Shown piece after piece: positions 13,340 through 26,758 of a stretch of DNA of 64,000 bases. The translations under genes and the position numbers were made by a program. The stretch comes from Luteibacter aegosomatissinici (lineage in GTDB: Bacteria > Pseudomonadota > Gammaproteobacteria > Xanthomonadales > Rhodanobacteraceae). The notes under the pieces were generated by a model that did not search any database, was not told where the DNA came from, and saw only the letters and a list, made by a program, of their open reading frames with translations. Each line of letters opens with the position of its first letter. Position 1 is the first letter of the stretch. The stretch spans positions 744,001 to 808,000 of the forward strand of contig NZ_CP095742.1 of the NCBI RefSeq assembly GCF_023078495.1. Direction: 5' to 3'.

Positions 13340-14212
13340 TTATGGGCCGGGGTTGTGGATTCGCTCGGGACGGTTGTAGACATTGAAGCGGCCGGGGCGG
13401 GCGAAACCGACCAGCGTGAGGCCGCATTCATCGGCCAGCGCCACCGCCAGTGCCGTCGGGGCCGAGATGGCGACCAGCACGGTGATGCCGGCGACGGCCG
13501 CCTTGGTCACCATCTCGTAGCTCGCGCGGCTGGTAATGAGCGCGAAGCCCTCACGCGGGTCGATCCCGCGCCGGGTCATTGCACCGATCAGCTTATCCAG
13601 CGCGTTGTGCCGGCCCACGTCCTCACGCACCACCATCAGCGAGCCATCGGCGCGCGCCCACGCCGCGGCGTGTACCGAGCCGGTAAACGCGTTGATCGGC
13701 TGCTCGGCGCGAAGGGCCTCGAGCGCGCGCTCGATAGCATCTGGCGCCACGTTAGTGCCCGCGGCCACGGGGCGCGGACGGCGGATCACGTCTTCCAGTT
13801 CACGCGTGCCGCAAATGCCGCAGCCACTGCGACCGACGATCTCGCGCTCACCCAGCGGGCCAGCAGGCGCGGCATCGGCCGAAGCCAACTCGGCCACCGT
13901 GGCAGCCGGCGTGACCGTCGCAGCCTCCCGCGTGCGCACGTCGATCGTGATGCCCTCGAGCATCTCCTGCACCTCGATGGATTCAATGTCGCGCGCATCG
14001 CCGACCCGGTTCTCGGTGAGCGCGAAGCCACGCGCGAAGTCTTCGAGGTCGACCGGTGAGGCCATCATCACGGCAAACGGCTTGCCATTGATGTGCACAG
14101 CGACAGGCACCTCCTCGGCGAGACGGTCATCATCGTTGGTCGCCCGCCCGCGCTCGTAGCGGGTGACGGGACGGGTGGCGCTACCCGCCGGGGGAAGCAG
14201 TTCATGCCGCAT
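13340..14212 (-). CDS. fdhD: Sulfur carrier protein FdhD
   Basis: A 290-residue protein that passes sulfur from a cysteine desulfurase to the bis-MGD cofactor of formate dehydrogenases, which is needed for activity. The key CxxC is present as CGIC (Cys131 and Cys134). The C-terminal cofactor-binding half (EDVGRHNALDKLIG, then SRASYEMV) is conserved. The first 11 bases overlap the end of the upstream oxidoreductase gene, so the two are probably translated together. It is convergent with the mobA operon. Confidence 0.96.
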   Translation of the reverse strand: MRHELLPPAGSATRPVTRYERGRATNDDDRLAEEVPVAVHINGKPFAVMMASPVDLEDFARGFALTENRVGDARDIESIEVQEMLEGITIDVRTREAATVTPAATVAELASADAAPAGPLGEREIVGRSGCGICGTRELEDVIRRPRPVAAGTNVAPDAIERALEALRAEQPINAFTGSVHAAAWARADGSLMVVREDVGRHNALDKLIGAMTRRGIDPREGFALITSRASYEMVTKAAVAGITVLVAISAPTALAVALADECGLTLVGFARPGRFNVYNRPERIHNPGP

Positions 14213-16538
14213 GGGTTGCCTTCTTGCGGCGGGTGGCGGGTGCCGGGCCGGTGGCGGCCTCGATGCGTACGGGCACCGATTTGTAAGTGGGTGTGCCCGA
14301 GTGGCTGTCGTGGTTTTCCAGCGAGATGAGCGCGTTCCCTTCGGGGTAATACATGGCGACCGAGCCTTCGGCTATGTCGTATGCCACGGCGGTGAAACTG
14401 CGCACGGCACGCTGGCGGCCGTCGGCGATGTTCCGGCCGGTGGCGAAGATATCGATGCGGTCGCCGTGCTTCAGTCCGCGCGCGGCTAGATCGTTGGCGT
14501 GCATGAACACCACATCGCGCCGGCCCGTTACACCGCGGTAGCGATCGTTCAAGCCATAGATCGTGGTGTTGTACTGATCGTGCGAGCGGATGGTGGTGAG
14601 CATCAGGCCACCTTCTTCCACGCGGTCATCTTCATCCAGCCCGCGTGCCAGCAGGAACCGGGCGCGCTTGCTCGGCGTGGCCCAGTCGCGCTCACTCGCG
14701 GCAACGCGCAAGCGGAAACCACCGGGCACGTTCACGCGCTTGTTGAAGTCGAAGAAGATCGGAAACACGCTCTCGATATCGTCGCGGATGAGGTTGTAGT
14801 CGCCGACCAGACGATCCCAGTTCACCTTGGTGTTGGGCAACGTGGCCTTGGCGATGCCCGCGACGATCCACGGCTCCGACCGCAAGTGTTCCGAGGCAGG
14901 CGTCAACGTGCCCGCGGAGGCGTGCACCATCGACATCGAATCTTCCACCGTCACCGCTTGTGGCCCGGTGGCTTGCTCGTCCAGCTCGGTGCGGCCAAGG
15001 CAGGGCAAGATGAACGATTCCTTCGCCAGGAGCAGATGCGAGCGATTGAGCTTGGTCGCGACGTGCACGGCAAGATCGAGCTTGCGCATCGCCTCGAAGG
15101 TTTCGTCGGTATCCGGCATGGCCACGGCGAGGTTGCCGCCCAGGGCGATCATGGCCTTCGAGCGGCCGTCACGGATGGCGAGCAGCGACGCCACCGCATC
15201 GTGGCCGTGGTCTACTGGCGGCTCGAAACCATACGTACGGCGGATACCTTCGTTGAGATCCGCATTGGGCTTCTCGGTGATGCCCACGGTGCGATCACCC
15301 TGCACGTTGCTGTGGCCGCGCAGCGGGCAGATGCCGGCGCCCTGGCGGCCGATATTGCCGCGCATGAGCAGGAGGTTGGCGATCTGCTGCACGTTCTCGG
15401 TACCGTGCTGGTGCTGGGTAATGCCCATGCCGTAGCAGACGATGACCGCTTTGGCCTTGGCATAGATCGAAGCGGCGTACTCGATCTCACCACGCGACAG
15501 GCCGCTCTTGCGCTCGATGTCAGCCCAGCTCGTCGCACTGACATCCTGCACGAGGGCTTCGAAGCCTTCGGTGTTCTGCGCGATGAACGCATGGTCGATC
15601 ACGGGCGGCCGTCCTGCGTCGCGCGCGATGGCATCTTCTTCCACCAGGTACTTCATCATGCCCTTGAGCACGGCGACATCACCGCCAATCTTCACCTTGT
15701 AATAGGTGGAGGCGATACGCACCGATTTACCGGTGAGCATTTCCGAGGCGTGCTGCGGCGAGGTGAAACGCTCCAGGCCGCGTTCGGGCATGGGGTTCAT
15801 GACGACGATAGGCACGCCGCGCAGGGACGCTTCGCGCAGGGTGGAAAGCATGCGCGGGTGATTCGTCCCCGGGTTGTGCCCGATACAGAAGATGGCATCG
15901 CAGTGGTCGAAATCCTCGAGCAGGACGGTGCCCTTGCCCGAGCCGATCGACTGCGGCAGCCCCACGCTGGTCGCTTCGTGGCACATGTTCGAGCAATCGG
16001 GGAAGTTGTTCGTTCCAAACTCGCGGACGAACAGCTGGTAGAGAAACGCGGCTTCGTTCGAAGCGCGGCCCGAGGTGTAGAACTCCGCCATGTTCGGATC
16101 GGGCAGGGCGCGCAGGGCGGCGCCGATCCGGCGGAAGGCCTCCTCCCACGCAATGGGCTTGAAGGTGTCGCTGCCCGCGTCGTAGGCCATCGGGTGGGTC
16201 AGGCGGCCCAGCCCCTCCAGCGTGTAGTCGCTGAGCTTCCACAGGTCAGCCACGGTGTTCTTCGCGAAGAATTCCGGGCGTACGCGCTTGGCGGTCGCCT
16301 CCCAGGACACGGCCTTGGCGCCGTTCTCGCAGAACTCGAACGACGAGGTCTCCTTGGGGTCCGGCCACGCGCAGCCCGGGCAATCGAACCCGTGCGGCTG
16401 GTTCACCTTGTGCAGTGCGATGGATTCGCGGGCCAGGGCCATCTGGCCGCTCAGCGCGCGTGCAACGGCACCCAGTGCGCCCCAGCCACCCGCCGGGCCG
16501 TCGTACTCGTCGATGCCGGGAACACGCTGGTCGCTCAT
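14202..16538 (-). CDS. FdhF/YdeP-family molybdopterin oxidoreductase
   Basis: A 778-residue formate-dehydrogenase-like molybdoenzyme of the FdhF/YdeP family. Features include an N-terminal CPGC pair (Cys53, Cys56), SNMCHEATS (Cys near residue 185, at the place where E. coli FdhF carries selenocysteine), GICPLRGHSNVQGDRT, and a C-terminal cofactor-cap domain (RSHDQYNTTIYG, MHANDLAARGL). There is no signal peptide, so it should be cytosolic. Members have been linked to formate oxidation and acid resistance, but the substrate of YdeP-type proteins is unproven. The start at 16538 gives MSDQRVPGID; a TTG five codons upstream is possible. fdhD overlaps its end. Confidence 0.9.
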   Translation of the reverse strand: MSDQRVPGIDEYDGPAGGWGALGAVARALSGQMALARESIALHKVNQPHGFDCPGCAWPDPKETSSFEFCENGAKAVSWEATAKRVRPEFFAKNTVADLWKLSDYTLEGLGRLTHPMAYDAGSDTFKPIAWEEAFRRIGAALRALPDPNMAEFYTSGRASNEAAFLYQLFVREFGTNNFPDCSNMCHEATSVGLPQSIGSGKGTVLLEDFDHCDAIFCIGHNPGTNHPRMLSTLREASLRGVPIVVMNPMPERGLERFTSPQHASEMLTGKSVRIASTYYKVKIGGDVAVLKGMMKYLVEEDAIARDAGRPPVIDHAFIAQNTEGFEALVQDVSATSWADIERKSGLSRGEIEYAASIYAKAKAVIVCYGMGITQHQHGTENVQQIANLLLMRGNIGRQGAGICPLRGHSNVQGDRTVGITEKPNADLNEGIRRTYGFEPPVDHGHDAVASLLAIRDGRSKAMIALGGNLAVAMPDTDETFEAMRKLDLAVHVATKLNRSHLLLAKESFILPCLGRTELDEQATGPQAVTVEDSMSMVHASAGTLTPASEHLRSEPWIVAGIAKATLPNTKVNWDRLVGDYNLIRDDIESVFPIFFDFNKRVNVPGGFRLRVAASERDWATPSKRARFLLARGLDEDDRVEEGGLMLTTIRSHDQYNTTIYGLNDRYRGVTGRRDVVFMHANDLAARGLKHGDRIDIFATGRNIADGRQRAVRSFTAVAYDIAEGSVAMYYPEGNALISLENHDSHSGTPTYKSVPVRIEAATGPAPATRRKKATHAA

Positions 16539-16710
16539 GGGGCTGATTCGCAAGAAGTTCTGGGATTGGGCGCCATTCTACGCTGCCCACCTTTCCCGAA
16601 ATAAACGGCCACGTCAGCTACGAACGAAAGTTTCACGCCGATTTGTCGGGCAAACCCCCAACCTCCGCGCCGCTCGGCGTCCCTCCCCAGGCGCCGCAAG
16701 GATCGTTTTT

Positions 16711-17730
16711 ATGTCCATGCCACAGCTCCGGCTTGCGGCCGCGCCCCCCCACGGCCTATCACCGGCCGGCCTCACCATTGGCGATATGCGTGGCTATGGC
16801 CGCGTTTCGGCCGATGCCGCCCTGGTGTCGCTGGCGCTATGGCGAGCGGCAGGCTGCCTGCGCACCTCCTCGCCCGAGCGCCCCTTGCTGAGCCTGCAAC
16901 TCGACGGTGATGTGCAGTGGGTGTCGGCCTACGTGCCAGGGACCAACGTGCTCGAGACGGTGGGGCACGCCCAAGGCGCCGAGCTTCGCGTGGTCGATTT
17001 CATGGCCGTGGCGGAAGGGCGCCCGGGCCAGGCGGAAGCCGTGCCGGCGGGCCGCTTCGTGCGTATCGTGACCTGCACGGAAGGCGAGGCCTCGTTCCGG
17101 CTGGAGTGCGCCACGCCGGCCATGCCTGGAGGCACCCATGACGCGCTCGCTCCAGGGGCCTGGTACTTCGCATGCTCACGGCCCATGGGCACGGGCTCGG
17201 AGGCGGGGATCGCGCATGTGCGCCTGAAAGCGGGTCAAAGCGTGTCGTTCATGATCGGGGATGCCCCGCTCCAGGGCGGCCCTGCGCTTGCGGCCAACGC
17301 CCTGCATGCCTTGGGCGAAACGATTCATTACTGGACCTGGTGGAGCGATCGCTGCCGCTACAAGAGCGAGGACTTCGATGCCCGCCTGCGCGAGGCGCTG
17401 ACACTGAAGCTCGCCTTCGGTGCGGGCTCGCTCTATGCCGCTGAGCCCGGTGTAGCGGGTTTCGCCCATGCCTCGCTCGGCGAAGCCACCCGCGCCGCGG
17501 AAGCCTTCCTTGCCCTCGGCTACCGGAATGAGTGCGCCTCACTGTTGGCCCAGGTGTACGAAGAGGGGCGTGAGGGGGCCAGCCGCGGTCGCTGGTCCTT
17601 CGACGAACCGTTCCTGCAGACGCTGGATGCGTATGTGCTGCGCTACGGCACACTGGGGCTGGCCGATGACCTGCGCCGGGCCGCTGAGGCGCAAGATCCC
17701 GTGCTGCAATGCACAAAACGCATGGCGTAA
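16711..17730 (+). CDS. Truncated GH15/trehalase-like protein
   Basis: A 339-residue protein starting at ATG 16711. It resembles the N-terminal beta domain and first helices of bacterial GH15 glucoamylase/trehalase-like enzymes. The clearest match is IHYWTWWSDRCRYKSEDF followed by REALTLKLAFGAGSL (about residues 205-245), where GH15 proteins read like WRDWxxRCRY...ALTLK. A shortened remainder follows, with no room for the usual (alpha/alpha)6 catalytic barrel and no recognisable catalytic Glu pair. It may be a relic or a repurposed binding protein. It is divergent from the oxidoreductase gene, and its last codons overlap an operator of the porin promoter. Confidence 0.6.
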   Translation: MSMPQLRLAAAPPHGLSPAGLTIGDMRGYGRVSADAALVSLALWRAAGCLRTSSPERPLLSLQLDGDVQWVSAYVPGTNVLETVGHAQGAELRVVDFMAVAEGRPGQAEAVPAGRFVRIVTCTEGEASFRLECATPAMPGGTHDALAPGAWYFACSRPMGTGSEAGIAHVRLKAGQSVSFMIGDAPLQGGPALAANALHALGETIHYWTWWSDRCRYKSEDFDARLREALTLKLAFGAGSLYAAEPGVAGFAHASLGEATRAAEAFLALGYRNECASLLAQVYEEGREGASRGRWSFDEPFLQTLDAYVLRYGTLGLADDLRRAAEAQDPVLQCTKRMA

Positions 17731-17753
17731 GCGAAGACATGCATCAATTGCAT
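17709..17753. promoter_or_regulatory. Tandem LysR-type operator, porin promoter
   Basis: Two 15-bp sites of the form ATGCA-N5-TGCAT lie at 17709-17723 (right half CGCAT, one mismatch) and 17739-17753 (perfect). Their centres are 30 bp apart. The 15-bp spacer matches the galD copy at 13 of 15 bases. The sites contain T-N11-A, the usual LysR box, and the regulator gene lies one gene downstream. The first site overlaps the end of the preceding gene. Confidence 0.75.
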
Positions 17754-17846
17754 ACCTGAAAGATCGTTCATCGCGTTGTTCCCCAGGGCCGGGGCGGCCA
17801 GCATCGCCCCCGCTTTCGCCGTTCTTTCGGCACCGGGGATTTTTCA

Positions 17847-19196
17847 ATGATGCTTCGCCGCTCCATGTTCGCCCTTTTCGCCACGCTGGCCGTCACGGCC
17901 GCGAGCGCGCAGACCACGACCGATGCCCAGCCGCCGCGGCAGACCACGCCAGCGAAGCCGAAAGACGATGGCGGCCCGGTGGATCGCCTGCGCGACATGG
18001 GCATTTCCCTGCGCTTCGTATGGGCCAACGACTGGGCGGCGAGCGTACGTGGCGGTGAGCGCCTGGGCGCTACCAATGGCGGCGGCGCCGTGGGTGGCGC
18101 GGATCTCGACATGGGCAAGCTCGCCGGCATTGAAGGCGGCAAGATGCACATCACGTTCGCCCGTTACTACGGCCACAGCGTGGCGGCCGACGATATCGGC
18201 GTGCTGCAGAAGATCCAGGGCTACTGGTACCCGAAACGCCAGTGGGAACTGGCCCAGCTGAGCTGGGAACAGCAGTTCAAGGATAGCCACATCAATGTAC
18301 TGGCAGGCCGGATCAATGCGACCTGGCAGTTCGCGCGTTCCACGTATGGCTGCCGTTTCGTCAGCGCGCCCGATTGCCCGTACCAGCTCACGAACACATC
18401 GGGTGGCTTCAGCGGCTTCCCCTACGTGAACTGGGGCGCGCGCGTGAAATACCAGCCGGATGCGCGCTACGTATCGATCGGCGCATTCGAAGTGAACCCC
18501 GAGCGCCGAAACAACAACGGCCTGAACTGGGGCCTCAACGATTCCACTGGCGTGATGATTCCGGTGGAAGTCGGTTACGAGACCAGCTTCGCCACGGATC
18601 CGTACCCGAAACACCTGAAGATCGGCGGCTGGTACAACTCCGCGCCCTTCACCGATCCGGAACTCAATACCAAGGGGCTGCACCGCGCGCTCGCGGGCGG
18701 TACGGCACGCAACTATGACGGTGGCCGTTATGGCCTCTACGTGCTTGCCGACAAGGTGATCTGGAAGCCCGACGCCAACAGCAATACACGCAACCTTGCG
18801 GTGTTCGGTTCGCTCACCGGCCCTCTGGATAACGCGGAAAACTACACGCTGCAATCCACCGGTGGTTTCCTGTGGACGGGGCTGTCGCGTGCACGGCCGA
18901 ACGATTCACTAGGATTCCAGGCCACCTGGTTTCGCTTCAGCAAGAAGGCCGTGGGCTACGAAGACGACCTGATCACCAAGAATAAGGGTGACGGCCACTT
19001 CAAGCGCGATGAGCTCATGACCGAGCTCAACTACAGCTACAAGCTGTTCCCGGTGGTGAGCCTGGTGCCGAACCTGCAGTACATCGTGCACCCCGATGTG
19101 CTCGGCAACACGGTCGGTGTACGCAAGGTGCCCGCCAATGCCATCGTCATCGGCCTGCGCGTCATGGTGAACATGGGCGGCCCCGGCAGCCAGTAA
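17847..19196 (+). CDS. Outer-membrane carbohydrate-type porin (OprB family)
   Basis: A 449-residue outer-membrane protein with a signal peptide (about residues 1-21, ending ASAQ) and a beta-barrel of the OprB carbohydrate-selective porin type. The typical parts are visible: an early plug-like DRLRDMGISLRFVWANDW, NVLAGRINATWQFA, FPYVNWGARVKYQP and the terminal strand ANAIVIGLRVMVNM. In this locus it probably admits the aromatic-derived dicarboxylate (PDC or a related acid) rather than sugar. The tandem operator upstream matches the one before galD, which supports that role. Confidence 0.85.
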   Translation: MMLRRSMFALFATLAVTAASAQTTTDAQPPRQTTPAKPKDDGGPVDRLRDMGISLRFVWANDWAASVRGGERLGATNGGGAVGGADLDMGKLAGIEGGKMHITFARYYGHSVAADDIGVLQKIQGYWYPKRQWELAQLSWEQQFKDSHINVLAGRINATWQFARSTYGCRFVSAPDCPYQLTNTSGGFSGFPYVNWGARVKYQPDARYVSIGAFEVNPERRNNNGLNWGLNDSTGVMIPVEVGYETSFATDPYPKHLKIGGWYNSAPFTDPELNTKGLHRALAGGTARNYDGGRYGLYVLADKVIWKPDANSNTRNLAVFGSLTGPLDNAENYTLQSTGGFLWTGLSRARPNDSLGFQATWFRFSKKAVGYEDDLITKNKGDGHFKRDELMTELNYSYKLFPVVSLVPNLQYIVHPDVLGNTVGVRKVPANAIVIGLRVMVNMGGPGSQ

Positions 19197-19234
19197 ACGG
19201 CCCATAATGCCGCTACCACAGGCAACCGCGCACC

Positions 19235-20149
19235 GTGACCTTGGATCTGAAACACCTGCAAAGCTTCATCCGCATCGTCGAATTCGGCAGCCTGACCCGC
19301 GCCGCGGCGACGCTCGATGTCTCGCAGTCCCTGCTCAGCCGCCAGGTGCGCCAGCTGGAGATCGAGCTGGGCACGCACCTGCTGGAGCGCAACGGCCGCG
19401 GGGTGGTCCCCACGGATGCCGGCCGCGAACTGGTGGAACACGGCCGCGGCATCCTGCGCCAGGTCGAGGTCGCCCGGTTGTCCCTGGGCCAAAGCCGCGG
19501 TGTGTACGCCGGTAAGCTCGCCATCGGCTTGCCACCCAGCGTGGGCTCAACGCTCACGGTCGAACTGGTGATGCGCTTCCGCGAGCGCTACCCACAGGCG
19601 CAGATCAGCGTGGTGGAAGCGCTCAGCGCCAGCCTGCTCGAGTGGCTGCAACTGGGGCGGCTCGATTGCGCGTTGCTGTACAACCCCGCGGTGAACGCGA
19701 ACATGCGCTTTCGCCATGTGCATTCCGAAGAACTCAACCTGATTGGCAGCACGCGCGATGGCCACACCGTGCCCGATTCCGTGCCGTTGGCCACGTTGGG
19801 CCAGTACCCGCTGATCATCCCGTCGCCGCTGCATTCGGTGCGCCAGCTGATCGAAACGGATGCGGCGCGTTACGGTGTCGGGCTGGATATCCGCCTGGAG
19901 ATCGATTCGGTACGGTCGCTGCTCGATCTGGTGGAGCGTGGCGTTGGCTACGGCGTGCTATCGCGCAATGCCTTGCTCTCCCGTCGCGGCGAGCACGCCT
20001 TGCGTGCGGCACCCATCGTGATGCCACAGATCACCACGCGGCTGGTCGTGGCCACGCCCACCCAGCGCCCGACCAGCCCGATCACGGAAAAGGCCCTGGA
20101 GATCGTCGACGAACTCATCGCCGAGGGCCGGCTGGACGCTGGCCGCTGA
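19235..20149 (+). CDS. LysR-family regulator of the PDC/gallate genes
   Basis: A 304-residue transcriptional regulator starting at GTG. The N-terminal winged helix-turn-helix is clear (LQSFIRIVEFGSLTRAAATL, SQSLLSRQVRQLE), followed by a periplasmic-binding-protein-like effector domain. It lies between the two promoters that carry matching tandem ATGCA-N5-TGCAT sites and is probably their activator. The effector is likely a pathway acid such as PDC or 4-oxalomesaconate. It follows the porin gene by 38 bp and could be co-transcribed with it. It corresponds by position to GalR-type regulators, but this exact identity is not proven. Confidence 0.88.
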   Translation: MTLDLKHLQSFIRIVEFGSLTRAAATLDVSQSLLSRQVRQLEIELGTHLLERNGRGVVPTDAGRELVEHGRGILRQVEVARLSLGQSRGVYAGKLAIGLPPSVGSTLTVELVMRFRERYPQAQISVVEALSASLLEWLQLGRLDCALLYNPAVNANMRFRHVHSEELNLIGSTRDGHTVPDSVPLATLGQYPLIIPSPLHSVRQLIETDAARYGVGLDIRLEIDSVRSLLDLVERGVGYGVLSRNALLSRRGEHALRAAPIVMPQITTRLVVATPTQRPTSPITEKALEIVDELIAEGRLDAGR

Positions 20150-20157
20150 GTTGTGCA

Positions 20158-20202
20158 ATGCAACATCTGCATGCCGTAAGCAAAGACATGCAATTCGTGC
20201 AT
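20158..20202. promoter_or_regulatory. Tandem LysR-type operator, galD promoter
   Basis: Two perfect ATGCA-N5-TGCAT sites lie at 20158-20172 and 20188-20202 with centres 30 bp apart. The arrangement and spacer match the porin promoter. In both copies the sequence ATCGCGTTGTTC begins 17 bases after the second site (20219-20230 here, 17770-17781 there), which points to a duplicated promoter. Confidence 0.8.
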
Positions 20203-20288
20203 AGCAGATAAGCGTCGTATCGCGTTGTTCGGTCCGGCCGGGATGGCGACCATCGTCCCGGTCCTGGAATACCGTGGCGCACTCGCCG

Positions 20289-21374
20289 ATGTCGTACGAA
20301 ATCCCCTGCTGGTATATGCGTGGTGGCACCTCCAAGGGGCCGTTCTTCCTCGCCCGCGATCTCCCCGCTGACACCGCCACCCGCGATGCCGTGATCCTGG
20401 CCGCGATGGGCTCGCCCGATGAGCGCCAGATCGATGGGCTGGGTGGCGCCAAGCCCCTGACCAGCAAGACCGGCATTCTTTCGCTGCCCACCGACGGCGC
20501 GGCCGATCTCGATTTCCTGTTCGGCCAGGTGGGCATCGCCGAGGGCCGGGTCGACACCACCCCGAACTGCGGCAACATGCTCGCCGCGGCGCTCCCCGCT
20601 GCGATCGAGGCGGGCCTGGTCACCGCGGATGAAGGCACCACCACGCGTCGCGTGCGTACCGTGAATACGGGCGTCATCGCGGAGATCACGATCCAGACCC
20701 CGGGCCGCCGCCCTGCTTACGATGGCGACGCGCGCATCGACGGTGTGCCGCGCCCTTCGGCGCCGGTCACCTGCGGTTTTCTCGACACCGAAGGATCCCT
20801 GTCGGGCTCACTGCTGCCCACCGGCAACCTGCGCGACACCATCGATGGCGTTGAGGTCACCCTGATCGATAACGGCATGCCGGTGATGCTGATTGCCGCT
20901 GCGGACCTGGGTGTGAATGGCGACGAGCGCCCCGATGCGCTGGACGCGAACACCGCGTTGAAAGCGCGCATCGAAGCACTGCGCCTGAAGGCCGGTCCGC
21001 TCATGAACCTAGGCGATGTCTCGGCCAAGCCGGTGCCGAAGATCACCCTGGTGTCGAAGCCGCGCCATGGCGGCGCGCTGGGCACGCGAACCTTCATTCC
21101 GCACGACTGCCATACGTCCATCGGCGTGCTTGGTGCCGTCACCGTCGCCACCGCGGCGGTGATGCCGGGCACCGTGGCCGCGGATGTCGCCGAGCCGGGG
21201 CAGGGCGAGTCGCGCACGCTTTCCATCGAACACCCCACCGGCGAATTCAGCGTGGAGCTCGGCCTTGCCAACGGCCGTGTCGTTCGCGCCGCGTTGCTAC
21301 GTACCGCACGCCTGCTGATGCGCGGCAGCGTGCCGGTTTCATCTTCGATCTGGCCCGGCCCCGCGGCCGGCTGA
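20289..21374 (+). CDS. galD: 4-oxalomesaconate tautomerase (PrpF family)
   Basis: A 361-residue isomerase of the PrpF/DAP-epimerase fold. It is predicted to interconvert keto and enol forms of 4-oxalomesaconate in the lower gallate/protocatechuate 4,5-cleavage route. The family start IPCWYMRGGTSKG is present, as are GSPDERQIDGLGGAKPLTSK and TPNCGNMLAA (the active-site Cys in NCGN). The ATG at 20289 fits the family length; a GTG at 20274 has a better Shine-Dalgarno (CTGGAA) and may be the true start. It is the first gene of a galD-galB-galC-ligI-carrier operon. Confidence 0.9.
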   Translation: MSYEIPCWYMRGGTSKGPFFLARDLPADTATRDAVILAAMGSPDERQIDGLGGAKPLTSKTGILSLPTDGAADLDFLFGQVGIAEGRVDTTPNCGNMLAAALPAAIEAGLVTADEGTTTRRVRTVNTGVIAEITIQTPGRRPAYDGDARIDGVPRPSAPVTCGFLDTEGSLSGSLLPTGNLRDTIDGVEVTLIDNGMPVMLIAAADLGVNGDERPDALDANTALKARIEALRLKAGPLMNLGDVSAKPVPKITLVSKPRHGGALGTRTFIPHDCHTSIGVLGAVTVATAAVMPGTVAADVAEPGQGESRTLSIEHPTGEFSVELGLANGRVVRAALLRTARLLMRGSVPVSSSIWPGPAAG

Positions 21375-21395
21375 TCCCATCCCACGGAGCCCCCC

Positions 21396-22118
21396 ATGTC
21401 TGAGAACAAGACCGCGCTGATCGTAAGCGCCCATTCCGCCGACTTCGTGTGGCGTGCCGGCGGTGCCATCGCGCTGCACGCCGAAAAGGGCTGGAAAGTA
21501 CACATCGTATGCCTCTCGTTCGGCGAGCGCGGTGAATCCGCCAAGCTGTGGCGCGTGCCCGGCATGACGATGGAAAAGGTGAAGACCGACCGCCGCCGGG
21601 AAGCCGAAGCGGCCGCCGCCATCCTCGGCGCCAGCGTCGAGTTCCTGGATATCGGCGATTACCCGATGCGCGCTGATCTGGACGTGGTGTTCCACCTCGC
21701 CAAGGTCTACCGCGAGCTGCGCCCGTCGTTCGTGCTCAGCCATTCGTTGAAGGACCCGTACAACTTCGACCACCCGCTGGCCACCCATGTGGCGCAAGAA
21801 GCACGCGTGGTGGCACAGGCCCATGGCCATGAGCCGGCGGTACCCGTGATCGGCGCGCCGCCGGTGTTCCTGTTCGAACCGCACCAGCCGGAGCAGTGCG
21901 AGTGGAAGCCGGAACTGTTCCTCGACATTTCGTCGGTGTGGGAAAAGAAGCAGGCCGCCTTCGAGACCATGGCCGCGCAGGAGCACCTGTGGGAGTACTA
22001 CACCCGCGTCGGCCTGCAGCGCGGCGCGCAGGCTTCGCGCAACTCCGATTTCAAGATCAAGTACGCCGAAGCCTTCCAGCGCGTCTTCCCGCACGTGACC
22101 CAGGGCACGCTGGCATGA
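21396..22118 (+). CDS. galB: 4-oxalomesaconate hydratase (PIG-L/LmbE fold)
   Basis: A 240-residue zinc enzyme predicted to hydrate 4-oxalomesaconate to 4-carboxy-4-hydroxy-2-oxoadipate. It has the PIG-L deacetylase fold, and its metal site reads SAHSADFVWRAGGAIALH instead of the deacetylase AHPDDE; this variant is typical of GalB. A second histidine cluster is in SHSLKDPYNFDHPLATH. The start has GGAG upstream. It follows galD by 21 bp and overlaps galC by four bases. Confidence 0.9.
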   Translation: MSENKTALIVSAHSADFVWRAGGAIALHAEKGWKVHIVCLSFGERGESAKLWRVPGMTMEKVKTDRRREAEAAAAILGASVEFLDIGDYPMRADLDVVFHLAKVYRELRPSFVLSHSLKDPYNFDHPLATHVAQEARVVAQAHGHEPAVPVIGAPPVFLFEPHQPEQCEWKPELFLDISSVWEKKQAAFETMAAQEHLWEYYTRVGLQRGAQASRNSDFKIKYAEAFQRVFPHVTQGTLA

Positions 22119-22807
22119 TGGGCGTCGTGGTCCGCAATCGCCCCTCCATCACACCTGACCAGGCCGAAACCCTCGCCTCGATGGGTGTAGCCACCGTGCA
22201 CGAGGCGCAGGGCCGCGTTGGCCTGTTCCTGCCGCCGATCCAGCCGATCCAGCGGGATCGTGCGATCGCGGGCTCGGCCGTGACCGTGCTGGCGCAGCCC
22301 GGCGATAACTGGATGCTGCACGTGGCCGTGGAGCAATGCCGTCCAGGTGATGTGCTGGTCGTCGCCTGCACCACCGAGAATACCGATGGGATGTTTGGCG
22401 ACCTGCTCGCCACCTCGCTCATGGCGCGCGGTGTCGTAGGGCTGGTGATTGACGCGGGCGTGCGCGATAGCGCCGAACTGCGCCGCGTGGGCTTCCCGGT
22501 GTGGGCAAAAGCCGTGCACGCGCGCGGCACCGTGAAGGCTACGCTCGGCTCGGTGAACGTGCCCGTGGTGATTGGTGGTCAGCTGGTGAAGGCCGGCGAT
22601 GCGATCGTCGCCGATGATGATGGTGTGGTCGTTGTACCGCATGCCTCCGTGGAGTCGGCGATTGCCGCCTCGCGCAAGCGCGTACTGAACGAAGAAGCCA
22701 AGCGCGAACGCCTTGCGGCGGGCGAGCTTGGCCTGGATATTTACGATATGCGCCCGCGCCTGGCGGAAGCCGGGCTGCGCTATGTGGACGATCTGCCGAA
22801 TGAATAA
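22115..22807 (+). CDS. galC: 4-carboxy-4-hydroxy-2-oxoadipate aldolase (RraA fold)
   Basis: A 230-residue class II aldolase predicted to cleave 4-carboxy-4-hydroxy-2-oxoadipate into pyruvate and oxaloacetate. The RraA-like fold is recognised from VATVHEAQGRVG, GDNWMLHVAVEQCRPGDVLVV and the metal-site motif GLVIDAGVRDSAELR, whose Arg-Asp pair is catalytic in this family. Two adjacent ATG codons (22115, 22118) could start it. The start overlaps the galB stop and its own end overlaps ligI by eight bases, so the whole operon is translationally coupled. Confidence 0.92.
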   Translation: MMGVVVRNRPSITPDQAETLASMGVATVHEAQGRVGLFLPPIQPIQRDRAIAGSAVTVLAQPGDNWMLHVAVEQCRPGDVLVVACTTENTDGMFGDLLATSLMARGVVGLVIDAGVRDSAELRRVGFPVWAKAVHARGTVKATLGSVNVPVVIGGQLVKAGDAIVADDDGVVVVPHASVESAIAASRKRVLNEEAKRERLAAGELGLDIYDMRPRLAEAGLRYVDDLPNE

Positions 22808-23681
22808 CCCGCTCAAGGGCTGCCTGCCGCCCGACCCGAACCCCACGAAGCCGCTGCAGGCGATGCCCGCGAAATCATGCGATGCGCATTGCCATGTATT
22901 TGGCCCGGCGGACCGCTTTCCGTACGCGCCCGATCGCAGCTACACGCCGCCGGATGCACCGTACGAACACCTCGTGGCCCTGCACGACTTCCTGGGGTTC
23001 GATCGTGGTGTGATCGTGCAGGCGAGCTGCCATGGTACCGATAACACCGCCATGCTCGATGCCATTGCGCGCAGCAACGGCCGCTACCGTGGCGTGGCGA
23101 TCGTGGATGACGGCATCGACGAAAAAGGCCTGGCGATATTGAATGACGGTAGCGTGCGCGCTGTTCGCTTCAACTTCGTGCAGCACCTTGGCGGCCGCCC
23201 GGACATGAATGTGTTCTGGCGCGTACTGGATCGCGTCACCGAGATGGGCTGGCACGTGGTGCTCCACCTGGATGCCCAGGACATCGTGGAACTGCAGGAT
23301 GTGCTCGCAAAGATCCGCGTGCCGTTCGTCATCGACCACATGGGCCGCGTGCAGGCCGCGAAGGGCGTTGAACAGGAACCGTTCCGCCTGCTGCTGGCGC
23401 TGATGCGCGATAATCCGCTGGCGTGGGTGAAGGTCTGCGGTGCCGAACGCGTCTCGGTCGGCAAGCGCCCGTTTGACGACGCGATTCCGTTTGCGCACGC
23501 GCTGATCGAAACCGCACCCGATCGCGTGCTGTGGGGTACGGATTTCCCGCACCCGAACATCTCGAAGGACATGCCCAACGACGGCGGCCTGGTGGACCTC
23601 ATGTTCCGCTTCTGCCCCGATGAGGCCCTGCGCCATCGCCTGCTCGTGGATAACCCCGCGCGCCTGTACGACTTCGCCTGA
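22800..23681 (+). CDS. ligI: 2-pyrone-4,6-dicarboxylate hydrolase
   Basis: A 293-residue amidohydrolase-superfamily enzyme that opens the lactone ring of 2-pyrone-4,6-dicarboxylate (PDC) to give 4-oxalomesaconate or its tautomer. It tracks Sphingobium LigI throughout: [16 protein letters not shown] near residue 25, [27 protein letters not shown] and the late [10 protein letters not shown] with its catalytic Asp. As in LigI there is no mononuclear zinc requirement built in. It supplies the entry step for the three enzymes encoded just upstream. Confidence 0.93.
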
Positions 23682-23692
23682 AGAGCGTGACC

Positions 23693-24979
23693 ATGCCCGA
23701 TACCACCACCCTCCCGCCAGCGCGTCCGCGCAAGCCGTTCTACCGCCAGCTGTATGTGCAGGTGCTGGTGGCGGTGGTATTGGGCGTCATCCTCGGTTAC
23801 CTCTCGCCGAAGTACGCCGTGGCCATGAAGCCGTTCGGCGACGCGTTCATCGCGCTCATCCGCATGGTGATCGGGCCAATCATCTTCTGCACCGTGGTGA
23901 CCGGCATCGCCGGCATGCGCGACATGCGCAAGGTCGGCCGTGTCGGCGGCAAGGCGCTCCTGTATTTCGAGATCATCTCGACGGTGGCGTTGTTCTTCGG
24001 CCTGGTGGCGGGGCACATCTTCCACCCGGGTACCGGCTTCAATGTGGATCCGGCCAGCCTCAAGGCGAACGAGGTAGCCTCGTTCGTGGCCCAGGGCCAC
24101 AACATCGAATCGATCGACTTCCTGCTGTCGATCATCCCCACGACGTTCGTGAATGCCTTCGCCAAGGGCGATGTGCTTTCCATCCTGCTCATCTCGGTAC
24201 TGTTCGGCTGCGCGCTGGCGGCAACCGGTGAGCGCGGCAAGCCGGTCTACGATGTGATCGAGGCTGGCGCGCAGGTCTTCTTCAAGATCGTGCACTACAT
24301 CACCGCCGTGTCGTCGATCGGCGCGTTCGGTGCGATTGCCTTCACCATCGGCAAGTACGGCGTGGTGGCCCTGGTGCCGCTCATGGAGCTGATTGGCAGC
24401 TTCTACCTGGTCTGCATCATCTTCGTGGTACTGATCCTTGGCATCGTCGGCCGGCTGTGTGGGTTCAGCATCATTCGCTTCTGTGGGTACATCAAGGATG
24501 AGCTGCTGATCGTGCTCGGCACCAGCTCATCCGAAGTCGTGCTCGCGCCGCTGATGCGCAAGATGGAAGAGGCGGGTTGCCCGAAGGAGACCGTGGGCCT
24601 GGTCGTTCCGACGGGTTACTCGTTCAACCTCGACGGCACCAACATCTACCTCACCATGGCGATCCTGTTCATCGCCCAGGCGCTGAACATCGACCTCACG
24701 ATCGAGCAGCAGATTACCGTGGCGATCGTGGGCATGCTCACATCGAAGGGTGCCTCTGGCGTGGCCGGCGCGGCGCTGGTGATGCTGGCCTCCACGCTCA
24801 GCGTGGTCCCGGTCGTGCCCGTGGCCGGCATGGTCCTGATCCTCGGCATCCACCGCTTCCTCGGCACCGGCCTGGCCATGACCAACCTGGTCGGCAACGG
24901 CGTCGCGGCGATCGTGGTCTGCGCGTGGGAAAAGGAGCTGGACCGCACAAAACTCGCGACTGCCCTCAAAAAATCGTAA
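23693..24979 (+). CDS. dctA: DctA-type dicarboxylate carrier (DAACS family)
   Basis: A 428-residue inner-membrane symporter with about eight membrane segments and the family's re-entrant loops. The signature [20 protein letters not shown] lies near residue 305, and [17 protein letters not shown] precedes it. DctA proteins import C4-dicarboxylates with protons or sodium. Here it closes the PDC operon, so it probably carries PDC or a related pyrone/aromatic acid instead of succinate; that is inferred from context only. An in-frame GTG at 23687 is an alternative start. No terminator is obvious downstream. Confidence 0.85.
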
Positions 24980-25105
24980 AGGTGAGCTTTCCTGGGCGAT
25001 TGGTGCGTACAAGGCAACGCGCCATCGCCGGTGTCGCTACTTCCGGAGCTCTTAGGGCAGGCCTAGCATCGTCACCACAGAAGCGTGGTGATTGCGAGGT
25101 GCCCC

Positions 25106-25870
25106 ATGAATATCGTGGTGATTGGCGGCCATGGCCTGGTGGGGCGGCAGGTCGCCGCGCTGCTGCGCAACGACGGACACAATGTGACTGCGGCATCGCG
25201 TGTGACGGGCGTGGATATCGTCACCGGTGCGGGTCTGGATGACGTCCTGGCGGGTGCCCATGTCGTCGTGGATGCCAGCAACGCGGAGCCGCCCTACGGC
25301 GAGCCGTCGTATGCCTTCTTCACGACAGGCGCGCGCCATCTGCTGGATGCCGAGCAGCGGGCGGGCGTAAAGCACCACGTTTCGATCTCGGTGGTGGGTA
25401 CCGACCGGCTGGAGAGCAGCCCCTATTTTCGCGGCAAGGCCCACGCGGAGGCCATGATCCGGGCCTCAGGCGTGCCTTATACGATCCTGCATGCCACGCA
25501 CTTCTACGAATTCCTGCTGGCGATCGTCGAGGCGGCGATCGCAGACCAGGTCCTGAGGTTGTCACCGGCGCTCATCCAGCCCGTCGCCTCCTCGGATGTG
25601 GCGGAGGCCATGGCTGCGATCGCGGTGGGTGAGCCCTTCAATGCCACGCTGGAGCTGGCTGGGCCCGAGCGGGAACGCATGTCCGACCTCGTGCGGCGCT
25701 TCGTGGGTGATATGGAATCGCCATTCGATGTCGTTACCGACCCGGGCGCGCCTTACTTCGGTGCGCTGCTCGACGATGGCTCATTGGTACCCAGGGCGGA
25801 GGCGCGCTGTTGCACCATGCCGTTCAATACGTGGCTGCGCCGTTCCGAGTACGCTCGGGCAAATTGGTGA
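25106..25870 (+). CDS. NAD(P)-binding NmrA/SDR-like protein
   Basis: A 254-residue atypical short-chain dehydrogenase-like protein. The Rossmann motif is at the very start (IVVIGGHGLVGRQVAALL), followed by DASN and YFRGKAHAEAMIRASGVPYTILHATHFYEFL, the pattern of NmrA-type and quinone-reductase-like proteins that bind NAD(P) but lack the Tyr-x3-Lys catalytic pair. The start has GAGGTG upstream. The next gene begins 12 bases later, so they may be co-transcribed. The substrate is unknown. Confidence 0.85.
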   Translation: MNIVVIGGHGLVGRQVAALLRNDGHNVTAASRVTGVDIVTGAGLDDVLAGAHVVVDASNAEPPYGEPSYAFFTTGARHLLDAEQRAGVKHHVSISVVGTDRLESSPYFRGKAHAEAMIRASGVPYTILHATHFYEFLLAIVEAAIADQVLRLSPALIQPVASSDVAEAMAAIAVGEPFNATLELAGPERERMSDLVRRFVGDMESPFDVVTDPGAPYFGALLDDGSLVPRAEARCCTMPFNTWLRRSEYARANW

Positions 25871-25882
25871 CGAGACGACCCC

Positions 25883-26758
25883 ATGAAGCGCATCCTCCTG
25901 CAGAGCACCATCCCGCCCACGGACGATGACTGGCATATCGGCCGGTTCTCGCTGCTGAAGGAGACCCTGTCCTCCATGGAGGGTGCCGACGGCCAGCCGT
26001 TGTTCGAGGTGACCGCGCGGGATCGCGATCCGGTGGGCGCGCCTGACAGCGTGCTGTCGAGGCTGGATACCTCGGACTACGACCAGCTTTGGCTGTTCGC
26101 CGTCGATGTCGGCGACGGGCTGGCTCCTGAGGATTGCGAGGCGATTGGCCGGTTCCGTGAGCGGGGCGGCGGCATGCTGGTCGCGCGTGACCACATGGAC
26201 CTGGGTAGCTCGGTGTGTACCCTCGGTGGCGTGGGCGCGGCGCACTTCTTCCATTCGAAGAACCCGGACCCGGATACCAGCCGGCACCAGAACGACGACA
26301 CCATCACCACGAGCATCCAGTGGCCAAACTACCACTCGGGCGCGAACGGTGATTACCAGACGATCGAGCCCGTGTTGCCGTTGCATCCCGTGCTGCATGA
26401 CCCGGATGCGCCGGATGGCGCGCTCCGCTTCCTGCCCGCGCACCCACACGAGGGTGCGGTCGGCCAGCCGGCGGGCGATTCCACGGCGCGAATCATCGCA
26501 ACCGGCCGCAGCGAACTTACCGGGCGCACGTTCAACATCGCGGTAGCCTTTGAACCACACGGCCGTACCGGCCCGGCCGTCGCGGAGTCCACGTTCCACC
26601 ATTTCGCCGACTACAACTGGGACCCCGCCCTGGGTTCGCCGAGCTTCGTGAGCGAAGCGCCGGGTGACGGGTTAGCGGGATCCGCGGAAGCCCGCCGGTC
26701 GATCCGGCGCTACGCAGAAAACATCGCGTTATGGCTGGCCGGGTACCCAGTGACCTAG
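25883..26758 (+). CDS. Hypothetical ThuA/glutamine-amidotransferase-fold protein
   Basis: A 291-residue soluble protein with no signal peptide. The order of motifs (ILLQSTIPPTDDDWHIGRFSLL, YDQLWLFAVD, FRERGGGMLVARDHMDLG and later LHPVLHD) suggests the flavodoxin-like fold of ThuA and class I amidotransferase proteins, without a clear nucleophile Cys. It follows the NmrA-like gene closely. Its last four bases overlap the end of the convergent esterase gene. The fold call is tentative and the role is unknown. Confidence 0.55.
   Translation: MKRILLQSTIPPTDDDWHIGRFSLLKETLSSMEGADGQPLFEVTARDRDPVGAPDSVLSRLDTSDYDQLWLFAVDVGDGLAPEDCEAIGRFRERGGGMLVARDHMDLGSSVCTLGGVGAAHFFHSKNPDPDTSRHQNDDTITTSIQWPNYHSGANGDYQTIEPVLPLHPVLHDPDAPDGALRFLPAHPHEGAVGQPAGDSTARIIATGRSELTGRTFNIAVAFEPHGRTGPAVAESTFHHFADYNWDPALGSPSFVSEAPGDGLAGSAEARRSIRRYAENIALWLAGYPVT

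What the first reader, a model, noticed from the sequence alone, without database searches (positions are those of the whole stretch)
17709..20230. Two promoters share a duplicated tandem LysR operator
Both the porin promoter (17709-17753) and the galD promoter (20158-20202) contain two ATGCA-N5-TGCAT sites with centres 30 bp apart. The spacers match at 13 of 15 bases, and an identical ATCGCGTTGTTC starts 17 bases after the second site in both. The match in register over 73 bases implies a duplicated regulatory unit, with the LysR gene between the two. The 30-bp spacing is close to three helical turns, so both sites face the same side of the DNA.
Basis: partly seen in the sequence, partly recalled or inferred. 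Interest (0 to 1): 0.72.

Follow-up and report, generated by a model that had tools for sequence, protein, structure and literature searches.

The report
Paired LysR operators at two promoters
Two neighbouring promoters in a Luteibacter-type bacterium carry the same pair of DNA sites, very probably the landing pads of the LysR-type regulator encoded between them, so that an outer-membrane pore and an organic-acid breakdown operon would be switched on together; it is a well-conserved example of a known type of switch.

Summary
The two 73-bp units agree at 50 positions; random 73-mers average 20. The pair is specific. A consensus drawn from the relatives (up to 2 mismatches) occurs exactly twice in each of the 15 family genomes (of 233) in which the LysR was found, and not in the other 218; reversed controls are zero. 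Gene order porin–lysR–galD–galB–galC–LigI-like–dctA is kept in 15 of 15.
A recent duplicated unit is not supported: porin–galD identity within genomes equals that between genomes (51.7 vs 51.4 of 80, p=0.36).
New: TTGT is followed after 17 bp (26 promoters) or 18 bp (4) by [CG]A[CG][CG]AT in 30 of 30, most simply a −35/−10 pair, which puts the site centres at −95 and −65. The sites resemble the predicted GalR site of Pseudomonas; the layout resembles LigR of Novosphingobium. The operon has a LigI-like lactonase, and the only two LigB-type dioxygenases found in the genome look DOPA-type, so it may take up 2-pyrone-4,6-dicarboxylate. Binding and regulation are inferred.

The parts
17709..17723 (+). 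porin promoter, operator site 1 (ATGCACAAAACGCAT), predicted centre about -95
   Evidence: placed in 15 of 15 orthologous porin promoters; only match in the window to the Pseudomonas GalR site at up to 2 mismatches
17739..17753 (+). porin promoter, operator site 2 (ATGCATCAATTGCAT), predicted centre about -65
17756..17761 (+). conserved CWGAWA block after GCATA
   Evidence: 30 promoters compared
17770..17781 (+). ATCGCGTTGTTC; last six bases predicted -35 element
   Evidence: TTGT in 30 of 30, TTGTTC in 26 of 30
17799..17804 (+). CAGCAT, predicted -10 element, 17 bp after TTGTTC; start site about 17811
   Evidence: [CG]A[CG][CG]AT at 17/18 bp in 30 of 30
17847..19196 (+). OprB-family porin gene, target 1
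   Evidence: Pfam PF04966 E=6.2e-69
19235..20149 (+). LysR-type regulator gene, presumed to bind the operators, same direction as both targets
   Evidence: PF00126 and PF03466; found in 15 of 233 family genomes
20158..20172 (+). galD promoter, operator site 1 (ATGCAACATCTGCAT)
20188..20202 (+). galD promoter, operator site 2 (ATGCAATTCGTGCAT)
20205..20210 (+). conserved CWGAWA block
20219..20230 (+). ATCGCGTTGTTC; last six bases predicted -35 element
20248..20253 (+). GACCAT, predicted -10 element, 17 bp after TTGTTC; start site about 20260
20289..21374 (+). galD, 4-oxalomesaconate tautomerase, first gene of target operon 2; likely start ATG 20289
   Evidence: NF033377 494 bits, cut-off 440; ATG in frame at this place in 15 of 15 loci, window included
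21396..22118 (+). PIG-L family gene, presumed galB hydratase from context
   Evidence: PF02585
22118..22807 (+). galC/ligK-type CHA aldolase gene (scanned frame; start codon not refined)
   Evidence: PRK09262 354 bits and TIGR02798 325.7 bits, both over cut-off
22782..23681 (+). LigI-like 2-pyrone-4,6-dicarboxylate lactonase gene
   Evidence: best PDB match 4d8l, E=6.5e-73
23687..24979 (+). DctA-type dicarboxylate transporter gene
   Evidence: NF002461 613.5 bits, cut-off 513

Best explanation
The two elements are the operators, and the only two found, of the LysR-type regulator encoded between them. A tetramer binds two T-N11-A dyads 30 bp apart at each promoter. With effector (inferred: 4-oxalomesaconate or 2-pyrone-4,6-dicarboxylate, PDC) it activates (i) the porin plus lysR, a positive feedback loop, as lysR follows the porin with no operator of its own, and (ii) galD-galB-galC-ligI-dctA. 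The outcome is uptake of PDC or a like dicarboxylate through the porin and DctA and its conversion to pyruvate and oxaloacetate. The sites lie upstream of a -35/-10 pair (TTGTTC-17-SASSAT), poor at -10 and so likely to need the activator, with centres at -95 and -65. Shown: conservation, specificity, co-occurrence, fixed spacing. Inferred: binding, activation, effector, start sites, co-transcription of lysR with the porin.
For: 2 consensus matches in each of the 15 genomes with the LysR and 0 in 218 others. In the genus, LysR and galD are in the same 14 of 23 genomes; the strict pair is in 13 of those 14 and 0 of the 9 without. Gene order kept in 15 of 15. The operator stays beside galD where 0.7-0.9 kb of extra DNA parts it from lysR (L036, L039), and beside the porin where most of the upstream gene is missing (6 of 14 loci). 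TTGT-N17/18-SASSAT in 30 of 30; the looser NANNAT in 30, against a mean of 0.18 and maximum 3 in shuffles. Sites resemble the predicted GalR site. LigI-like lactonase; two LigB-domain proteins in the genome, both nearest to DOPA dioxygenase.
Against: No binding or expression data. LysR and cluster are always together, so co-occurrence cannot separate LysR from another factor. The -10 hexamer matches TATAAT at only 3 of 6, and the hexamer pattern was defined after seeing it. A canonical LysR layout would put the sites at -65 and -35. The 15 genomes are related (LysR 74-96% identical to the window's), so the 30 promoters are not independent. CWGAWA and ATCGCG are unexplained.
Confidence: 0.72

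Rival explanations
1. Canonical LysR layout: site 1 is the recognition site at -65 and site 2 the activation site at -35, with transcription starting about 17781 and 20230; the -10-like block is then in the leader.
For: A recognition site near -65 is usual (PMC4730206 and PMC12016517, passages); predicted OxyR sites at -66 and -35 are 31 bp apart (PMC5002191, passage), nearly this spacing.
Against: I found no -35/-10 pair that fits that start; [CG]A[CG][CG]AT at fixed distance in 30 of 30 has no evident role in a leader, and no conserved RNA fold was found there.
Confidence: 0.25
2. One promoter arose from the other by recent duplication or gene conversion in this genome or its near kin.
For: 50 of 73 identities; spacers 13/15 here, 12/15 in L032, 10/15 in L035; positions 53-60 slightly more alike within genomes, p=0.03, one of eight regions tested.
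Against: Over 80 bp within-genome identity is not above cross-genome identity, p=0.36; upstream flank 7 of 33 here; majority forms of the two classes differ (porin C-T-GA in 15 of 15, galD mostly C-A-GA).
Confidence: 0.1
3. Another TGCA-binding regulator, such as a BoxR/BzdR-type XRE-family protein, owns the sites.
For: BoxR/BzdR bind multiple TGCA repeats, main motif ATGCACTATAGTGCAT, often several turns apart (PMC6449761, passages).
Against: That motif has a 6-bp gap, these 5 bp with the T-N11-A of LysR sites; the sites resemble a predicted LysR-type (GalR) site; presence follows the cluster that contains the LysR in 15 of 15.
Confidence: 0.06

Closest known systems
GalR of Pseudomonas putida KT2440 and strain NGC7 (PMC9942251: section 5 and passages; PMC12314914: passages)
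   Same: LysR-type activator of two gal promoters, one with a porin gene; effector 4-oxalomesaconate; predicted RBS plus ABS. The 60 sites here differ from the predicted RBS ATAAANAAANNGNAT at 2-6 of its 11 named bases, upstream 15-mers at 8.4 on average, and the AACGCAT of its RBS and ABS ends porin site 1 here
   Different: TGCA half-sites, both sites well conserved; regulator not divergent from its target; no gallate dioxygenase in the cluster. Part of the likeness is just the A-T ends and GNAT. Orthology of the proteins not tested
LigR of Novosphingobium aromaticivorans / Sphingobium SYK-6 (PMC12710314, passages)
   Same: LysR-type activator of 4-oxalomesaconate-pathway genes; two DAP-seq sites, both flanking its own gene, upstream of two promoters; binds upstream of -35 (-51 to -85)
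   Different: motif TT-N-GC-N6-TTAT absent here; about 30 bp protected there, two sites over 45 bp here; porin as a target here. Orthology not tested
OxyR/BenM-type paired LysR sites (PMC5002191 and PMC4730206, passages)
   Same: dyads about three turns apart for two dimers of a tetramer
   Different: there one site near -65 and others further down; here the better promoter fit puts both sites upstream of -35

Membership tests
LysR-type (LTTR) operator | T-N11-A core in an interrupted dyad | tested here: met
   T at position 1 and A at 13, T at 31 and A at 43 of the aligned unit; all four invariant in 30 promoters
LysR-type (LTTR) operator | LysR gene adjacent | tested here: met
   15 of 15 loci; the loci were fetched by their LysR
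LysR-type (LTTR) operator | recognition site near -65, activation site near -35 | tested here: inconclusive
   depends on the start site; the -35/-10 fit places centres at -95 and -65
LysR-type (LTTR) operator | regulator transcribed divergently from target (usual, not obligatory) | tested here: not met
   porin, lysR and galD point the same way in 15 of 15
LysR-type (LTTR) operator | binding and effector response | not testable with these tools
   needs protein and DNA
GalR of Pseudomonas | RBS like ATAAANAAANNGNAT | tested here: inconclusive
   porin site 1 is the only match in the window at up to 2 mismatches, but 1.33 are expected by chance; over the 30 promoters porin site 1 has 2-5, porin site 2 2-4, galD site 1 3-6, galD site 2 3-5 mismatches of 11, upstream 15-mers 8.4 on average
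GalR of Pseudomonas | regulates galD, galB, galC and a porin | tested here: inconclusive
   gene content agrees; regulation not tested; no gallate dioxygenase among the genes scanned
LigR regulon | two operators, both flanking the regulator | tested here: met
   2 per genome in 15 of 15
LigR regulon | TT-N-GC-N6-TTAT motif | tested here: not met
   9 matches in the window at up to 1 mismatch, 13 expected, none in either promoter
recently duplicated regulatory unit | copies more alike within a genome than between genomes | tested here: not met
   51.67 vs 51.38 of 80, p=0.36

The most novel reading that the evidence does not exclude
A three-position LysR relay: the tetramer rests on two strong dyads wholly upstream of the promoter (-95 and -65), and effector moves one dimer onto a third conserved element beside -35 (ATCGCG within ATCGCGTTGTTC, centred about 30 bp further down), at promoters kept dependent on it by an invariant G/C-for-T/A -10 (SASSAT, with A-11, A-8 and T-7 kept). 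The regulator amplifies itself through the porin transcript, and the whole serves uptake of plant-made PDC.
Probability: 0.18. Interest if true: 0.55.

Novelty: new member of a known kind. Interest (0 to 1): 0.36.

Why it matters
It gives a clean, testable regulator-operator pair with only two targets found, conserved base by base in 30 promoters, for a branch of aromatic catabolism where the sites of the Pseudomonas counterpart were said to be uncharacterised in 2023 (PMC9942251, section 5). The operon content suggests a bacterium that takes up 2-pyrone-4,6-dicarboxylate directly, a compound reported at 1-1.7% of strawberry leaf dry matter (PMC9415522, passages) and wanted as a polyester building block; the pair could serve as a sensor for it.

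Tried and rejected
RNA hairpin around the -10-like block: arms looked covarying by eye, but longest stems were 5.3 vs 4.5 (galD) and 4.7 vs 4.5 (porin) in shuffles and RNAalifold found 0 pairs in both sets; rejected. A stem before the porin ribosome site seen by eye was folded only singly, with mixed results; unproven. Rfam: 0 matches in 16000-26000.

Operator in more distant relatives: four LysRs 38-47% identical from a class sample of 369 genomes (at most 6 candidates scored per genome) have no such operator within about 6 kb, though one (L061) stands near galC- and LigI-like genes. 26 galD relatives from 23 other genomes, with up to 1.5 kb on each side, have none; four of them have a divergent LysR of only 24-26% identity, and no AACGCAT between the two genes.

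Coding constraint for porin site 1, which overlaps the end of an upstream ORF (stop 17728-17730): rejected, as that gene gives only a short N-terminal match or none in 6 of 14 loci (L036, L040-L044) while the operator stays. L047 was not tabulated for that gene.

A first family-wide consensus search gave 0 of 233 because I had miscounted the gaps; the pattern was corrected, checked on held sequence and rerun. One search is not evidence. The printout says 10 named bases for that motif; it has 11.

Looked for in print: no paper on this operator was seen in those listings; most subscription papers are not held.
Full report
Observation. One of the four sites, 17709-17723, has CGCAT instead of TGCAT. 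Over the 73 bases from site 1 to the end of ATCGCGTTGTTC the two promoters agree at 50 positions; about 20,000 random pairs from the window averaged 20.2 (sd 4.1, maximum 38), and the best off-register match between the two regions was 36. The own genome, 5.0 Mb, has just these two pairs at up to 3 mismatches and none for the reversed control. The 12-mer alone is common: 6 exact copies.

Surroundings. The genes are an OprB porin, the LysR, 4-oxalomesaconate tautomerase (galD), a PIG-L protein (galB by context), a CHA aldolase (galC/ligK), a LigI-like amidohydrolase and a DctA transporter. Of 7 named loci found with the LysR, 6 are Luteibacter; the seventh, an Enemella, matches weakly over half the protein. 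galD most likely starts at ATG 20289: an ATG stands there in frame in 15 of 15 loci, window included, and three show a stop just upstream.

Who has it. LysR relatives at E up to 1e-60 are in 14 of 23 genus genomes (all candidates scored) and 15 of 233 family genomes (at most 10 candidates scored per genome; 192 of the 233 are at least 90% complete and little contaminated). galD is in the same 14 of 23. The strict pair (up to 3 mismatches) is in 13 of those 14 and 0 of the 9 without; one extra match, in G018 far from the cluster, and single control matches in G003 and G009 show the noise level. The consensus TGCNWTGCANNANNNNCA-N16-WTG-N8-GCATANCWGAWA, drawn from these promoters, at up to 2 mismatches gives exactly 2 matches in each of the 15 and none in the other 218, controls zero; 28 of the 30 matches are exact. 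Because the consensus was drawn from these 15 genomes, their matching is partly by construction; what is informative is that there is no third copy and none elsewhere. LysR and cluster always go together, so this ties the operator to the cluster, not to LysR alone.

Anatomy. The 30 promoters were placed on an ungapped template; from position -7 to 72 they need no gap, as invariant bases stand along its whole length: T-7, TGC(-4 to -2), TGC(1 to 3), C12A13, T31G32, G41CATA45, C47, G49A50, A52 and TTGT(67 to 70). The outer half-sites are kept best. TTGTTC is exact in 26 of 30. After TTGT.. comes a stretch of little conserved sequence and then [CG]A[CG][CG]AT, 17 bp on in 26 and 18 bp in 4 of 30. 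The looser NANNAT stands there in 30 of 30, against a mean of 0.18 and at most 3 in shuffles; the hexamer was defined after seeing it. Conserved length without conserved sequence, TTG at one end and A-11, A-8, T-7 at the other, is what a sigma-70 promoter leaves. On that reading the starts are near 17811 and 20260 and the site centres at -95 and -65. A degenerate -10-like box (YANNNT) is on record for HrpX-dependent promoters in Xanthomonas (PMC3285194, one passage). A crude hexamer score also rates GATAAG/GAAAGA at position 49 as a -10 (2.32 vs 2.09); I saw nothing -35-like 17 bp before it, though positions upstream of 40 were not scored.

Duplication. If the unit had been copied recently, the two copies of one genome should be most alike. 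They are not: 51.67 of 80 within and 51.38 between genomes (p=0.36); spacer 7.2 vs 6.9 of 15 (p=0.27). Of eight regions tested, one (positions 53-60) was slightly more alike within genomes, 3.3 vs 2.7 of 8, p=0.03, highest in L034 with 8 of 8; one (site 1 centre) was less alike, 1.7 vs 2.4 of 5. Porin spacers are conserved among themselves (9.95 of 15), galD spacers less (6.09). The 13/15 match here, with 12 and 10 in two relatives, looks more than chance and may be retention of an old shared spacer or conversion in that clade; I cannot tell which.

Function. The two LigB-domain (PF02900) proteins found in the genome have 4,5-DOPA-extradiol-dioxygenase as their best NCBIfam model, at 174 and 170 bits, below its cut-off of 233; so they are of that kind rather than LigB or GalA, without a formal call. 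Other dioxygenase families were not searched. A lactonase, a tautomerase, a presumed hydratase, an aldolase, a porin and a dicarboxylate carrier without ring cleavage suggest that the cell imports PDC or 4-oxalomesaconate. PDC is plentiful in strawberry leaf (PMC9415522, passages); that Luteibacter is plant- and soil-associated is recalled.

Comparison. GalR of P. putida controls two gal promoters and answers to 4-oxalomesaconate (PMC9942251, section 5 and passages; PMC12314914, passages). Its predicted site ATAAANAAANNGNAT fits porin site 1 with 2 mismatches, the only such match in the window, though 1.33 are expected by chance; all 60 sites of the 30 promoters lie at 2-6 mismatches of 11, upstream 15-mers at 8.4 on average, and AACGCAT, reported in both GalR sites, ends 5 of the 60. 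Some of this follows from shared A-T ends and GNAT. LigR of N. aromaticivorans had two DAP-seq sites flanking its gene, at -51 to -85 from two starts (PMC12710314, passages): the same design, supporting a position upstream of -35, with a motif that is absent here. So the mechanism is of a known kind. The consensus was seen only in this clade as far as searched: 233 family genomes and flanks of relatives from 369 class genomes.

Limits. No binding, start-site or expression data; related genomes; orthology to GalR or LigR not tested.

Noticed in passing
window 22782-24979 with 17847-21374: Operon holds a LigI-like PDC lactonase, later pathway enzymes, a porin and a DctA carrier, while the two LigB-domain proteins found in the genome look DOPA-dioxygenase-like: possibly a PDC uptake operon.
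   Followed up: partly
window 20274-20289: The galD ORF listed from GTG 20274 more likely starts at ATG 20289, present in frame in 15 of 15 loci.
   Followed up: yes
L036 4716-5588 and L039 4788-5516 (approximate): About 0.7-0.9 kb of extra DNA separates lysR from the galD operator in two relatives; in L036 its ends look like an inverted repeat by eye; the operator stays with galD.
   Followed up: partly
window 16255-17730: ORF without a Pfam or NCBIfam match whose end overlaps porin operator site 1; its first part lies antisense to a molybdopterin-oxidoreductase gene (14202-16553), and most of it is missing in 6 of 14 loci.
   Followed up: partly
window 17811-17846: Short stem seen by eye before the porin ribosome site in several relatives (leader 26-43 nt on the predicted start); consensus folding of the overlapping stretch found nothing.
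   Followed up: partly
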